This document shows, piece after piece, positions 36,976 to 46,349 of a stretch of DNA of 64,000 nt. The notes beneath the pieces were generated by a model. That model saw only the letters and a list, made by a program, of their open reading frames with translations. It ran no database searches and was not told the DNA's origin. The position numbers and the translations under genes were made by a program. The DNA is from Halothiobacillus sp. (GTDB lineage: Bacteria; Pseudomonadota; Gammaproteobacteria; Halothiobacillales; Halothiobacillaceae), in assembly GCA_016278265.1 (NCBI GenBank), contig JADQCE010000001.1:1-64000 (forward strand), in the 5' to 3' direction. Each line of letters starts with the position of its first letter. The stretch's first letter is position 1.

Positions 36976-36996
36976 CGTTGCTGTCGCCGGGAAAGA

Positions 36997-38556
36997 GGTC
37001 AGAACCGAATGGCGCTAAGTTAAGCACGCTCATCGGCTGCTGTGATACCGTTTCGGGGCCGGCCGGTGGCACAATCGGTCAATGACCAGCACCAACCTTT
37101 ACTTGCCCGGTTTCCACCTCGCCACGCTCCGTCGCAAGCCTCGCTCTGCCAGCCAACGGATGGCTGACGAACACGCCCGTATACGCCGTCATTCGATCAG
37201 TGAACTGGGCGAACATCTCGCCCCGCTCATCCCCGCCCGCGATCTGGATCAGGGCGCAAACGGTCGCTTCAGTCGTAGGCGCGTGTTCAGTCGGGCGAAC
37301 ACGTTCTGGGCGTTCTTTTCTCAGGTACTCGATGCCGACGGCGGTTGCCGGGAAGTGGTGCGCAAAGTCCAAGCCTTTGCCACGTCGCGATCCTTGGTCA
37401 TGCCCTCCTCGTCAACATCCGCCTATTGCCAGGCAACGAAAGTGCCTTGGGGCAGATGCTCTGCCAGACGGGCGAGCGACTCGAAGCAGCAGGCCTAAGC
37501 GAACGTTGGCACGGTCGCCGAGTTGTCGTGGTCGACGGCACGGGGGTCAGCATGCCAGACACGTCAGCGAACCAGGAATGCTGGCCGCAGCCGAGAAGCC
37601 AGAAAGCGGGCTGTGGCTTCCCCCAGGCACGAGTATGCGCCTGCTTCAGCCTGCAAACCGGCGGCCTTCTCAGTTACCGCGTTGGTCACCACCGGAACCA
37701 CGAGCTGCCCTTGCTACGCAAACAGTGGGGCAGCTTCGAAGCCGGCGATGTATTCCTCGGGGACAAGGGCTTCTGCAGCTACTACGACATCGACCAGTTT
37801 CAACGTCGTGGTGTTGATTCGGTCGTGACCCTAGCTCGGCGCAAGCCGGTTAAAGCCTCAGAGGCCAAGCGAATCCTGGGGCCGGATGATCTGCTCATTC
37901 AGTGGCCCAAACCGTCTTGGCAACCGGCGCTGAGCTACAGTCGTGAGGAATGGGAGGCCCTTCCGGATCACCTGACGTTGCGCCAGATCAAGGTCACGGT
38001 CGACAACCCGGGATACCGGACCAAATCCTTTTACCTGGTGACCACGTTGCTTGATCCGGTGGCCTACAGTGCCAACGACCTAGCCGAGCTCTACCTTCGT
38101 CGCTGGAATGTCGAGCTCTTCTTCCGCGACATCAAGACGACGCTCGGAATGGACATCTTGCGTTGCCGAACGCCGACCATGGTGCGAAAAGAGATCCAGA
38201 TGCACCTGATCGTGTACAACTCGTTGCGGTGGCTGATGCTGGGCAGCCGCCCGACTCAGGGAACCGAGCGGGTGAGCTTCAAGGCGTGTCTTCAAGCGCT
38301 TCGCAACTGGGCAACCCAGCTTTCCCCTGATCCCTCAAAGCCTCGCAGGATCGGCGACATCGGCAAAGCTTTTACGATATGCCATCGCGACGTGTATCAA
38401 CTCTCATAGACCCGACCGACGAGAACCCCGATGCGTCAAACGAAGGCCGAAGCCTTTCGCCTTGCTTACCCGACCCAGGCACGAAATGACGGACACGCGG
38501 CACCGCAATAAATATCGTGCAAAACCCGCTTAACTTAGCGCCATTCAGTTCTGACC
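36997..38556 (+). mobile_element. IS4-family insertion sequence, about 1.56 kb
   Basis: Bounded by 29-bp terminal inverted repeats that differ at a single base (36997-37025 and 38528-38556); both contain AATGGCGCTAAGTTAAG. It carries one transposase gene, now in two frames. It lies 21 bp after the porin terminator T-run and 3 bp from the stop codon of the convergent SDR gene, so no gene is visibly cut. I could not find a convincing target-site duplication in the flanks. Confidence 0.88.
37082..38409 (+). pseudogene. IS4-family transposase, frameshifted
   Basis: The N-terminal part (MTSTNLYLPGFHLATLRRK ... PSSSTSAYCQA) lies in one frame to about 37440. The rest (LGQMLCQTGERLEAAGLSERW ... VVVVDGTGVSMPDTSANQ ... 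VFLGDKGFCSYYDI ... YLRRWNVELFFRDIKTTLGMDILRC) continues in the -1 frame. DDE residues are visible: D in VVDGT, D in LGDKGF, and E in the Y-(2)-R-(3)-E-(6)-K box. Adding one base near CCTTGGGG (37444-37452) restores a continuous protein of about 440 residues. The site is not a canonical slippery heptamer, so a one-base deletion that inactivates the gene is more likely than programmed frameshifting. Confidence 0.85.
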
Positions 38557-38559
38557 CCT

Positions 38560-39468
38560 TTAGGAAAGGTCGCGTGGGCAATCCGCCAGTGCCGCGGCCA
38601 GCGTGGGATAGTGGGGCTGCCATCCCAGGACGTGCTGGATGGCACTGGCATCGACACGCCGGGATTCGCTCAGGAATTCGCGGGCCATGGGGCTGGCCTG
38701 CTCGAGGATGGTCGCCAGCGGGGCCTCCGGGGGGTGTGGCAGGTCGAAGTGCGCGGCGATCTGGCGGTAGGTGACGTTCACCGGGGTGGGGTCGTTGTCG
38801 GAGACATTGAAGGTGCCGGTCACGGGGTGACCCGTCTCCATCCGGTCGATCAGCAAACGGAGGATATCGGCCAGGTCGTCGGCGTGGATGCGGTTGGACC
38901 ACGGTGCCTCTCGACCAGCGGGCACGGGCGTGCCCTGGCGGACCTTCTCCACGGGCAGGCGGTCACAGGCGTAGATGCCGGTCACCCGCAGCGTGCAGGC
39001 GGGGAGCTGGTGAGCCCGCGCGTACCGTTGACACTGAGCCTCTGCGTCCAGTCGACGCCGACCCCGGTCATGCGCGGGGGCCTGTGGTGTCGCCTCATCC
39101 ACCCAATTGCCGCCATGGTCGCCGTAGACACCGGTCGTGCTGATATAGACCAAGCCCGCGGGCGGGCGCGTTGCCCCGGCCAACCAGCGCGCGAGGCGCG
39201 GGTCGCTCTGTCCCTCGCGGGGTGGCGGGGCGAGGTAGATCCAGATCGCGTTTTCCGGCGTCGCTTCGGGCGGGATGACGGCGGAGTCGTCGTCCAGGTC
39301 AGTCGTGAATGCCTGCCATTGGCCGTGGTGCCCCTCGGGACGCGCTATCGGATGTCGAGCAATGGCGACGAGATCGTTGTCCGCCAGTCGATTGGCAAGC
39401 CGTTGCGCGATATCGCCGTAGCCGATGAGGACAATGGGTGTGCGATGGGGCTGAAGGTCGGATTGCAT
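38560..39468 (-). CDS. NAD(P)-dependent epimerase/SDR, YeeZ-like
   Basis: A 302-residue extended SDR. The Rossmann motif is IVLIGYGDIAQRLANRL; VYISTTGVYGDHGGNWVDEATP carries a YG-type active-site strand, and NRIHADDLADILRLLI is conserved in the YeeZ/GalE-like group. The substrate is unknown; HisG-linked and nucleotide-sugar roles have been suggested for relatives without proof. ATG 39468 has no strong ribosome site; the longer upstream frame looks non-coding. The IS lies 3 bp beyond its stop. Confidence 0.82.
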   Translation of the reverse strand: MQSDLQPHRTPIVLIGYGDIAQRLANRLADNDLVAIARHPIARPEGHHGQWQAFTTDLDDDSAVIPPEATPENAIWIYLAPPPREGQSDPRLARWLAGATRPPAGLVYISTTGVYGDHGGNWVDEATPQAPAHDRGRRRLDAEAQCQRYARAHQLPACTLRVTGIYACDRLPVEKVRQGTPVPAGREAPWSNRIHADDLADILRLLIDRMETGHPVTGTFNVSDNDPTPVNVTYRQIAAHFDLPHPPEAPLATILEQASPMAREFLSESRRVDASAIQHVLGWQPHYPTLAAALADCPRDLS

Positions 39469-42625: not shown

Positions 42626-43531
42626 TCAGCCGCGCGGGTGGTGCTCGGCGTGCAGGGCCTGCAGGCGGGCGGTGGCGACGTGGGTGTAAATCTGGGTGGT
42701 CGACAGGTCGGCGTGGCCGAGCAGCATCTGTAGGGCGCGCAGATCCGCCCCGTGATTGAGCAGGTGCGTGGCAAAGGCGTGCCGCAGGGTGTGGGGTGAG
42801 GGTAGGCGCGCCAGCCCCGCGTGGCGGGCATGGTGCTTGAGCCGGTACCAGAAGGCCTGGCGGGTCAGGGGCGCGGCCCGATTGGTGACGAATACCGCGG
42901 CGGTCTGCCGCTCGCCCAGCATGGCCGGTCGGGCCTCATCGAGGTAGCGGCGTAGCCAGTCGATCGCCTCGTCGCCGATCGGCACCAGGCGCTCGCGTCC
43001 GCCCTTGCCCGTGATGCGAGCCAGGCCGTGAGCGAGGTGGATCTCGTTGAGGGTCAGGTTGACCAGTTCGGAGACCCGCAGGCCGGTGGCGTAGAGGGTT
43101 TCGAGCATGGCCCGGTCGCGCAGACCCAGCGGGGAGCCGGTGTCGGGCGCATTCAGCAGGGCCTCGACGTCCGCCTCGCTAAGGTCGGTCGGCAGGGCGC
43201 GCGGCCGGCGTGGTGCCGGCAGATCCGTGGCCGGGTTGGGCTGGATCAGGCCCTCGCGATTGGCCCAGGCGTAGAAGCGGCGCAGGGCGGAACGCATGCG
43301 GCCCACGGAACGCGGCGCGGCGCCCTCGGCCAGGCGCTCGCCGAGAAGGCGGTTGAGGGCGTTGCCATCGGCATCGGGCAGGGCTCGGGTTTCGTCCAGT
43401 GCGGCGGCCCCAGAGAGTCGGCGCGCGGTCTGTTCCAGGTCGCGTCGATAGGCCGCCCGACTGTTCTCGGCCAGGTTCTCCTCCAGCCACAGGGCCTCGA
43501 TGAAGGCTGTGATCAATTCGTCGTCCCGCAT
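42626..43531 (-). CDS. xerD: Site-specific tyrosine recombinase XerD
   Basis: Acts with XerC at dif to resolve chromosome dimers. 301 residues: a SAM-like core-binding N-domain and the catalytic domain with R (ATGLRVSEL), K (GKGGRERLVPI), HxxR (HTLRHAFATHLL), H (LLGHADLSTTQIYTHV) and the nucleophile Y in IYTHV. The length and lack of an adjacent element favour the housekeeping gene. xerD-dsbC is a conserved pair. Confidence 0.94.
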   Translation of the reverse strand: MRDDELITAFIEALWLEENLAENSRAAYRRDLEQTARRLSGAAALDETRALPDADGNALNRLLGERLAEGAAPRSVGRMRSALRRFYAWANREGLIQPNPATDLPAPRRPRALPTDLSEADVEALLNAPDTGSPLGLRDRAMLETLYATGLRVSELVNLTLNEIHLAHGLARITGKGGRERLVPIGDEAIDWLRRYLDEARPAMLGERQTAAVFVTNRAAPLTRQAFWYRLKHHARHAGLARLPSPHTLRHAFATHLLNHGADLRALQMLLGHADLSTTQIYTHVATARLQALHAEHHPRG

Positions 43532-43565
43532 CGGGCTTGCCCTCGGTGCATTTGTGGTGGACGTC

Positions 43566-43795
43566 TAGGGAAAATGCTGCACGAATCCGACAACACTCTG
43601 CGCGGTCTTGAGCCGGGCCGGTGCCAGGGGCTCGTCCGCCGCGGAAGACTCGTTCGCTTTCCAAGGATGAAACCGAATCGGCATGCCGGGTAGCCACCGG
43701 CCCGAAGAACGAGGTCCATGGACGGGTCACGCGACGCCGCAGATTCCCGGTTCAAGACCGCGCAGAGTGTTGTCGGATTTGTGCAAAGTTCCCTA
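43566..43795. mobile_element. MITE-like element with 40-bp terminal inverted repeats
   Basis: The 40-mer at 43578-43617 is the inverse complement of 43746-43785 with two mismatches. Both arms contain AATCCGACAACACTCTGCGC. Outside them, TAGGGAA (43566-43572) and TTCCCTA (43789-43795) extend the symmetry with a two-base length difference. The 128-bp core has no open frame I recognise, although CGGGCCGGTG (43614-43623) also pairs with CACCGGCCCG (43695-43704). Size and layout fit a non-autonomous transposable element; no parent transposase and no clear target duplication are seen. Confidence 0.7.
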
Positions 43796-43892
43796 AGTCG
43801 GCAAATAGTATGACGCTGTGGAATCGGAACCGTGGCAGCGAAACGCTTGATCTGCCAACGGATCGGCGAGGATTCCCCACTTTTCAGACCGG

Positions 43893-44387: not shown

Positions 44388-46349
44388 ATGGATAACCTCG
44401 AGTCCATGCTGAGCGAGAAACGCATCTTCTCGCCGTCGACGGAATTTTCCGAACGGGCGAGAATCGGGTCGCGGGCGGCCTTCGATGCGTTGGTCGCCGA
44501 GGCCGAACGCGACTTCGAAGGCTTCTGGGCGCGGCTCGCGCGCGAATTCGTCACCTGGGATACCCCGTTTTCCGAGGTCCTGGACGATTCGAACGCGCCG
44601 TTCTTCAAGTGGTTCGCCGACGGGCGGCTGAACGTGTCGGTCAACTGCATCGATCGTCACCTGCCGGCCAAGGCCGAGAAGACCGCCATCATCGGCGAGT
44701 CGGACGACGGCAGCGTCACGCATATCTCCTACCAGGAGTTGCACGACCGCGTGGCGAAATTTGCCAACGCGCTCAAGGCGCAGGGCATCGAGAAGGGCGA
44801 TCGTGTCGTCATCTACCTGCCGATGATCCCCGAGGCCACCGTGGCCATGCTCGCCTGCGCGCGCATCGGCGCGATCCATTCGGTGGTGTTCGGTGGTTTC
44901 TCCGCCGAGGCGCTGCGCGATCGGATCAATGACACCGAGGCCAAGATGGTGATCACCGCCGACGGCAACATGCGCGGCGGCAAGAAGGTCACCCTCAAGG
45001 GGCAGGTCGACAAGGCCCTTGAGCATGGCTGTCCGTCGGTCGATACGGTCATCATGCTCGAGCACATCGGTGGCGTGGACACGGGTGCCTCCAGCGCGAA
45101 GGAGTTGACCTGGGCCGAGGCCGTCGAGGGTCAGCCGGCCGAGTGCGAGCCGGTCATGGTCGAGGCCGAGCACCCGCTGTTCATCCTCTACACCTCCGGG
45201 TCGACCGGCAAGCCCAAGGGCATCGTCCACTCCTCGGGCGGCTATCTCGTCAACGCGGCGATGACCTGCTCTTGGGTGTTCGATCTCAACGACGACGACG
45301 TCTACTGGTGCACGGCGGACGTCGGCTGGATCACCGGCCATACCTACGTCACCTACGGCCCGCTGGCCCTGGGTGTGACCCAGGTGATCTTCGAAGGCGT
45401 GCCCACCTACCCGGACGCCGGCCGTTTCTGGGACATGGTCGAGCGGCACAAGGTCAGCGTGTTCTACACCGCCCCGACCGCCATCCGTGCCCTGATGAAG
45501 CTGGGCGACGAGGTGCCGAACCAGTACGACCTGTCCAGCCTGCGCCTGCTGGGCACGGTGGGCGAGCCGATCAACCCCGAGGCCTGGGTCTGGTATTACC
45601 AGGTCATCGGCGGCGGCCGTTGCCCGATCACCGACACCTGGTGGCAGACCGAGACCGGCGCCCACCTGATCGCACCGGTTCCGGGTGCGATCGACCTGGT
45701 GCCGGGTTCCTGCACCCTGCCGCTGCCGGGCATCATGGCCGACGTGGTCGACGACCACGGCCATTCGGTGCCGACAGAGAGCGGTGGCAACCTCGTGATC
45801 AAGAAGCCCTGGCCGTCGATGCTGCGCACCATCTGGGGCGACGACGAGCGTTTCCAGCGCACCTACTTCCCGGACAACCTGCCGGGCTACTACCTGGCGG
45901 GTGACTCCGCGCGTCGTGATCAGGATGGCTACATCTGGATCATGGGTCGCATCGACGACGTCATCAACGTCTCTGGCCACCGTCTGGGCACCATGGAAGT
46001 GGAGTCCGCGCTGGTTGCGCACCCGGAGGTCGCCGAGGCCGCCGTGGTTGGGCGTCCGCACGATGTGAAGGGCGAGACCATCGTCGCCTTCGTCGTGGTC
46101 AAGGGTGACCGGCCGAAGGGCGAAGCCGCCGAGGCGATGGTCAAGACCCTGCGCGACTGGGTAACCGAGCAAATCGGACCGATCGCCAAGCCGGAAGAGA
46201 TCCGCTTTGGCGACAACTTGCCCAAGACGCGTTCGGGCAAGATCATGCGCCGCCTGCTGCGCGGCATCGCCAAGGACGAGTTGCCGGAAGGCGACACCTC
46301 CACCCTGGAGAACCCGGCGATCCTCGATCAGTTGATGGGCAAAGACTGA
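44388..46349 (+). CDS. acs: Acetyl-coenzyme A synthetase
   Basis: Activates acetate to acetyl-CoA through acetyl-AMP. 653 residues: the AMP-binding P-loop [44 protein letters not shown], and the acetylatable lysine in [11 protein letters not shown] near the C-terminus, a site of Pat/CobB control in relatives. GGAG five bases before ATG 44388 fixes the start; the frame is open 13 codons upstream without a good site. Its presence in an autotroph suggests acetate scavenging. Confidence 0.97.

What the first reader, a model, noticed from the sequence alone, without database searches (positions are those of the whole stretch)
43566..43795. Short element with 40-bp near-perfect inverted ends and no coding capacity
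The 40-bp arms (43578-43617 and 43746-43785, two mismatches) plus TAGGGAA/TTCCCTA tips enclose 128 bp of non-coding DNA, as in a MITE. I recognise no IS family from these ends.
Basis: seen in the sequence. Interest (0 to 1): 0.5.

Follow-up and report, generated by a model that had tools for sequence, protein, structure and literature searches.

The report
IS5-type miniature transposon, many copies
The short inverted-repeat structure is one copy of a small parasitic DNA element, with no genes of its own, that has spread through the genomes of a group of sulfur-oxidizing bacteria; its paired arms tend to change together over time, which makes it a natural test case for how DNA hairpins keep their pairing.

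Summary
The element is 43569-43792 (224 bp), flanked by CTAG/CTAA, in the genus Guyparkeria. It is not single copy: a core pattern of its family (type 1) occurs 112 times in 10 of 11 genus genomes, usually within a 266-bp form. A sister family, type 2, is also abundant. At this xerC-acs site the element is in 2 of 10 genomes. No relative of that transposase and no PF01609 transposase except an unrelated one in the own genome was found in the genus, so the family looks orphaned. The less ordinary part: the 266-bp form folds as a Y whose helices covary (43 of 109 pairs; 275 cells against 82 shuffled), also between orthologous insertions (23 two-sided changes, 5.6 expected), without G-U preference at pairs usually Watson-Crick (192 G-T, 192 A-C). 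DNA-level arm-to-arm copying is my inference from this.

The parts
43565..43568 (.). left copy of the 4-bp target duplication, CTAG (YTAR type)
   Evidence: read directly; YTAR enriched next to copies; one copy of 4 bp at empty sites of other copies
43569..43617 (.). left terminal inverted repeat with inner extension
43618..43669 (.). type-1 core: part of the first hairpin arm, shared with the 266-bp copies
43670..43737 (.). extra hairpin module, absent from the common 266-bp form, shared with L009, L010, L011, L020 and L033 and with type-2 elements such as L168; the second hairpin arm of the 266-bp form is missing from this copy
43738..43792 (.). right side of the first arm and right terminal inverted repeat, ending AAAGTTCC
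43793..43796 (.). right copy of the target duplication, CTAA (one difference from the left)
42626..43531 (-). neighbour: tyrosine recombinase (XerC/XerD-like by recall), start codon 37 bp from the element; not part of it
   Evidence: Pfam PF00589 and PF02899; distance
44388..46349 (+). neighbour: acetyl-CoA synthetase; not part of it
   Evidence: Pfam PF00501, PF13193, PF16177; start from the crude gene finder

Best explanation
A non-autonomous miniature transposon (MITE) with IS5-type ends. SHOWN: many dispersed, mostly intergenic copies; tips matching an IS5 element; a 4-bp YTAR target duplication; presence/absence differences between species; no recognised coding capacity. INFERRED: an IS5-group transposase supplied in trans bound the terminal ~17 bp and moved the element to YTAR sites; no such transposase was found in the genus, so the family now looks stranded or depends on visiting ISs. 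Second layer, INFERRED and less certain (about 0.4): the long Y-shaped pairing is kept up at DNA level. When one arm mutates, replication that switches template between arms (quasipalindrome correction) copies one arm onto the other, either reverting the change or turning it into a two-sided one, so copies drift in sequence while staying largely palindromic.
For: Copies: 112 core matches in 10 of 11 genus genomes; 114 of 124 seeds resolved at both ends, 57 of them exactly 266 bp. IS5: the pADP-1 element reads TTAG|GGAATCTCTGCACGAAT ... ATTCGTGCAGACCATCC|TTAG, its transposase gene starting 68 bp from the first base; 9 of 25 loci around related transposases (two of them overlapping others) carry similar tips beside YTAR. 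Target: YTAR on 31 of 114 left and 45 of 114 right flanks against 0-2 of 114 at control offsets; left 4-mer equals right in 22 of 114, shuffled mean 4.7, maximum 12 of 1000. Three empty sites align without a gap at the junction once one 4-bp copy is removed: L097 (against L004 and L111, the same site), L192 and L204 (against L015), L092 (against L191). Site polymorphism. Placement: 108 of 114 between predicted genes, 5 overlapping one, 1 at a contig edge. Covariation; terminal stem, 255 of 293 two-sided departures complementary. In 8 orthologous pairs 23 two-sided changes against 5.6 expected and 3-7 in slid controls, 16 complementary; one-sided changes giving G-T 28, giving A-C 25. Changes private to one copy on both sides: 11, 10 complementary; slid controls 0-5, with 0-1 complementary.
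Against: No transposition was observed. The tip match that led to IS5 had E = 3 alone; it carries weight through its place at the end of an IS5 transposase gene and the shared YTAR flank. 92 of 114 copies do not have identical 4-bp flanks. Several of the 20 junction-spanning alignments, the window copy's among them, have gaps or poor fit near the junction. For the DNA-level layer: over all 109 pairs G-T exceeds A-C (611 to 280; sense strand of tandem copies 323 to 242), because five columns hold mainly G-T, and the structure came from a fold that allows G-U but not A-C; equality appears only in the 101 pairs that are Watson-Crick in at least 75% of copies, a filter chosen after seeing the columns. 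In the 8 orthologous pairs 77 one-sided against 16 complementary changes mean that correction, if real, is incomplete; stems changed slightly less than loops, 7.2% against 9.3%, which weak selection would also give. The 315 one-sided departures are inflated by three positions where the two arms differ in consensus.
Confidence: 0.88

Rival explanations
1. A structured RNA or regulatory element, domesticated after insertion, whose hairpins are kept by selection on the transcript (mRNA stability, RNase III site, attenuator).
For: Very stable folds, strong covariation, intergenic placement close to genes, conserved inner blocks shared by types 1 and 2, G-T above A-C when all pairs are counted.
Against: No excess of G-U over A-C on the sense strand of 59 tandem copies in usually-Watson-Crick pairs (113 to 142); 9 of the 10 private complementary changes are not C-G/T-A exchanges, though taking only private bases favours such rare changes; no fixed orientation to genes (43 and 28 tandem); site not conserved; no Rfam family reached its threshold over the element; between types 1 and 2 unpaired positions are no better kept than stems (22 of 31 and 109 of 158).
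Confidence: 0.1
2. The two-sided changes come from gene conversion between dispersed copies, which replaces both arms at once with those of another variant.
For: Several variable pairs have two common states across the family, such as GC/AU at columns 78-86 and UA/CG at 150-226, and some orthologous two-sided changes fall on recurrent pairs, such as 155/255 and 36/139, each in two of the eight pairs.
Against: Ten complementary two-sided changes use bases found in no other aligned copy; but 4 of the 10 are in one copy, L127, whose arms carry an indel.
Confidence: 0.3
3. A MITE moved by a transposase other than IS5 that happens to share the tip.
For: No relative of the pADP-1 transposase in the 11 genus genomes; by eye the next 14 bp of the repeat have no counterpart in the pADP-1 element.
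Against: Tip, YTAR target and 4-bp duplication all agree with the pADP-1 IS5; the only PF01609 transposase of the genus, ORF 37345-38409 of the window, sits in an element with quite different ends.
Confidence: 0.07

Closest known systems
IS5-family insertion sequences (here: the IS5 element beside atzC on plasmid pADP-1, transposase WP_011117176.1)
   Same: Tip GGAANNTCTGCACGAAT (15 of 15 fixed positions left, 14 of 15 right), YTAR flanks, 4-bp duplication
   Different: Has a transposase gene (P0001, PF01609 and PF05598) and about 1.2 kb; beyond the tip I recognised nothing shared
Bacterial MITEs in general (review PMC10969869, passages read: ERIC, MITEAba12, Coxiella QMITE2)
   Same: Terminal repeats, direct repeats that fade with age, intergenic, stable stem-loops; the review quotes copy numbers from 1-22 to several hundred per genome
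   Different: The review calls MITEs typically AT-rich; these are 66% G+C, like the host (window 65%). The 266-bp form is nested hairpins in a Y over its whole length, and two-sided changes were measured here on orthologous insertions
Template-switch maintenance of hairpins (PMC8794818, abstract and opening read)
   Same: Compensatory changes explained by one arm templating the other during DNA replication
   Different: That work treats RNA genes; here the hairpins are dispersed non-coding transposons with little sign of RNA-level pairing selection

Membership tests
MITE (non-autonomous miniature transposon) | short, no transposase ORF | tested here: met
   224 bp; four overlapping ORFs without Pfam match
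MITE (non-autonomous miniature transposon) | many dispersed copies with the same terminal repeats | tested here: met
MITE (non-autonomous miniature transposon) | target duplication and empty sites in relatives | tested here: met
   for the family; at the window's own site the flanks differ by one base and the empty-site alignment is less clean
MITE (non-autonomous miniature transposon) | moved by the transposase of a related IS | not testable with these tools
   no partner found in the genus; needs an experiment
IS5 family, as a derivative | IS5-group terminal sequence | tested here: met
   15 of 15 fixed tip positions at the left end and 14 of 15 at the right end of the pADP-1 IS5, compared with the family tip, not with the slightly degraded window copy
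IS5 family, as a derivative | 4-bp YTAR target | tested here: met
   (31 and 45 of 114 flanks, controls 0-2); that IS5 uses YTAR is recalled, and seen in the pADP-1 element
IS5 family, as a derivative | interior derived from an IS5 element | tested here: inconclusive
   no parent element with the same interior or the full 31-bp repeat was found
Structured RNA family of Rfam | match to a curated family | tested here: not met
   window; five loci; the only matches over a gathering score are tRNAs outside the element

The most novel reading that the evidence does not exclude
A transposon family whose hairpin pairing is a product of replication, not of selection: two-sided changes arise by arm-to-arm templating in resident copies, so that covariation, the usual hallmark of a functional RNA, appears in DNA with no RNA function. 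If so, covariation alone cannot prove a structured RNA in repeated bacterial intergenic elements, and this family can measure the rate.
Probability: 0.35. Interest if true: 0.65.

Novelty: new member of a known kind. Interest (0 to 1): 0.38.

Why it matters
As a MITE it is an ordinary kind of thing, though large for its host: two related families, in the richest genomes dozens of copies in about 2.5 Mb, with no transposase of the expected kind found in the genus. The covariation matters more. Over a hundred dispersed copies, some orthologous between species, allow compensatory change to be compared with and without transcription, which bears on how hairpins keep their pairing and on how safely covariation can be read as proof of RNA function.

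Tried and rejected
Rejected: the element at 36992-38561 of the window as parent (ends AAAGAGGTCAGAACC). Rejected: single-copy regulatory structure. Considered and dropped: that loops are conserved while stems are replaced between types 1 and 2; counted, the two are alike. Considered and weakened: that arms are matched only while the element is mobile. Orthologues alone show an excess of two-sided changes, but their share of complementary among complementary plus one-sided changes (16 of 93, 0.17) is below that of all paralogue pairs at 6-9% divergence (0.29) and near that of nearest paralogues (0.20), so an extra effect of jumping or of subfamilies is not excluded. Led nowhere: plasmid search with the whole element and with type 2 (two marginal matches); Rfam; DUF772 in the genus (one fragment with a stop in G003, the genome without copies); RNAalifold on the full alignment gave a poor structure, so the fold of copy L029 was used. 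Searches showed no description of this family in the held library; of two Guyparkeria genome papers I saw word-search results for the main text only: no hit for transpos or insertion sequence.

Dropped rows: 10 of 124 seeds lacked one end; structure counts used 94 of 114 copies, those of 260-272 bp, or 55 of the 57 copies of exactly 266 bp (L140 and L152 were left out of my list for no recorded reason). Of 17 orthologous pairings 8 were counted: three pairs of short forms were left out, the four-way set L037/L101/L117/L163 was reduced to two pairs, which share one change (columns 8/284) that may be one event counted twice, and L140/L162/L174 to one.

Full report
What is there. The inverted repeat is real and at the stated place. 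The element runs from 43569 to 43792, 224 bp, between CTAG and CTAA. It sits 37 bp in front of the start codon of a tyrosine recombinase gene and about 0.6 kb in front of an acetyl-CoA synthetase gene that runs the other way. It codes for nothing recognised. The genus is Guyparkeria: contigs of unnamed same-genus genomes have exactly the lengths of records of G. hydrothermalis R3, SCN-R1, WRN-7 and LH_M38, and of one MAG titled Halothiobacillus sp..

It is a repeat family. The own genome has 20 matches, 17 of them other places. A core pattern with up to three mismatches occurs 112 times in 10 of 11 genus genomes, 3 to 25 per genome; the eleventh, G003, is 64% complete and has none. In other genera the DNA search gave only a 24-base match in G023. 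I resolved both ends of 114 of 124 seeds: 57 are 266 bp, 94 are 264-271, 18 are 163-233 and two 330-338. The window copy is a rarer form: it lacks the second hairpin arm and has an extra hairpin module (43670-43737) that recurs in L009, L010, L011, L020 and L033 and in a sister family, type 2 (L168, L044, L150). Type 2 is abundant too: up to 62 matched pieces in one genome, where a copy often gives two pieces and type-1 copies are partly included; outside the genus two copies lie in one of the eight same-family genomes searched (G015: L199 of 266 bp, L211 of 193 bp) and four weak matches in one more (G014). A strict core pattern over 369 genomes of the class hit 4, all Guyparkeria and the only four Guyparkeria in that sample; exact matching makes this a lower bound.

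It moved, and its ends are IS5. YTAR stands at 31 of 114 left and 45 of 114 right flanks, against 0-2 at control offsets; the two 4-mers are equal in 22 of 114 copies, shuffled mean 4.7 and maximum 12 of 1000. With one 4-bp copy removed, joined flanks of L004 and L111 match one and the same unoccupied CTAG in L097, those of L015 match L192 and L204, and those of L191 match L092, each without a gap at the junction; the window copy's flanks match L179 with a 10-base gap nearby, so less cleanly, and others of the 20 spanning alignments are poor. L004 and L111 hold their elements at this same site in opposite orientation. At the window site G000 and G006 are filled, G006 having lost the left tip; G002 has a 76-nt, 72% type-2-like remnant in the same gap; in G001, G009, G004, G005, G007, G008 and G010 no element is detected at E 0.01, apart from a 17-base match in G009 that I take for chance. 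A 34-base query of the terminal repeat matched plasmid pADP-1 with E = 3, which alone means nothing, but the match is the end of an IS5 element: TTAG, the tip, a DDE transposase gene starting 68 bp from the first base, the tip inverted with one mismatch, TTAG again. No relative of that transposase was found in the 11 Guyparkeria genomes; their only PF01609 transposase is the unrelated one in this window. So the elements look like non-autonomous IS5 derivatives without a resident partner; transposases outside these models were not sought.

The fold. The 266-bp form folds as a Y: a 29-pair terminal stem and two long hairpin arms (z = -15). On 55 copies 96.1% of cells pair, 43 of 109 pairs have changes on both sides, and 275 cells have such a change, against 82 in shuffles and 16-35 with slid partners. 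Some copies have terminal repeats far from consensus and still paired, such as L127 (12 of 31 positions, no mismatch between arms) and L108 (11, one mismatch); others, such as L174, L115 and L144, have 6-8 mismatches. Covariation between related copies can reflect subfamilies, so I looked at orthologous insertions. In 8 pairs with about 7% stem divergence, 23 pairs changed on both sides where 5.6 were expected from the single-side rates and slid controls gave 3-7; 16 kept Watson-Crick pairing. One-sided changes were more common (77), and 3 of the 8 pairs had no two-sided change.

RNA or DNA. Selection on a transcript should tolerate G-U and not A-C on the sense strand. In the 101 pairs that are Watson-Crick in at least 75% of copies the two are equal on the element strand (192 and 192), and on the sense strand of 59 tandem copies A-C is, if anything, commoner (142 to 113). 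Over all 109 pairs G-T leads (611 to 280; sense strand 323 to 242), because a few columns carry mainly G-T. I read the first comparison as the fairer one, but the filter was set after seeing the columns. Changes private to one copy on both sides number 11, 10 complementary, against 0-1 complementary in slid controls, so conversion by another aligned copy does not explain these; four of them sit in L127. The share of complementary changes is 0.17 in orthologues, 0.20 in nearest paralogues of the same mean divergence, and 0.29 in all paralogue pairs at 6-9%: the process acts in resident copies, but more may happen during spread. Template switching between arms, described for RNA genes in PMC8794818 (abstract and opening read), fits best; gene conversion remains a serious rival and may act too.

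Verdict. A confirmed, fairly ordinary IS5-type MITE, in a numerous and highly structured pair of families, with an interesting side result on how its arms evolve.

Noticed in passing
L168:1113-1448 and loci: A second MITE family (type 2) with the same Y architecture and IS5-type tips, abundant in the genus, with two copies in G015 of another Halothiobacillaceae genus (L199, L211).
   Followed up: partly
window 36992-38561: An element with a DDE transposase (PF01609) and 34-bp inverted ends AAAGAGGTCAGAACC...; the only PF01609 match in 11 Guyparkeria genomes.
   Followed up: partly
L004 and L111, empty in L097: Type-1 copies sit at the same target in G000 and G002 in opposite orientation, while G009 is empty there and has a copy close by: repeated insertion at one CTAG, or an element that flipped.
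   Followed up: partly
L181:1247-1322: A degraded type-2-like remnant in the xerC-acs gap of G002, the gap that holds the window copy in G000.
   Followed up: no
114 copies: In 28 of 114 copies a predicted gene stop lies within 2 nt of an element end, 24 of them TAG or TAA; the YTAR target contains these stops, so insertion there spares the gene. Gene ends come from a crude finder.
   Followed up: partly
L014 about 1063-1600; L150 near its reverse-strand positions 1243-1560: Two elements back to back: two type-1 copies sharing ATAA in L014, and a type-1 end followed by a type-2 start around one CTAG in L150.
   Followed up: no
consensus of types 1 and 2: Blocks inside the element are the same in both families (TGCAAGGCG, GTCCGCCG, GCGCCTTGAT..CGAAC), and CAAGGCGC and GCGCCTTG in the two arms are complementary; reason unknown.
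   Followed up: no
L029:360-599: Three tRNA genes in a row about 0.9 kb from a type-1 copy (Rfam).
   Followed up: no
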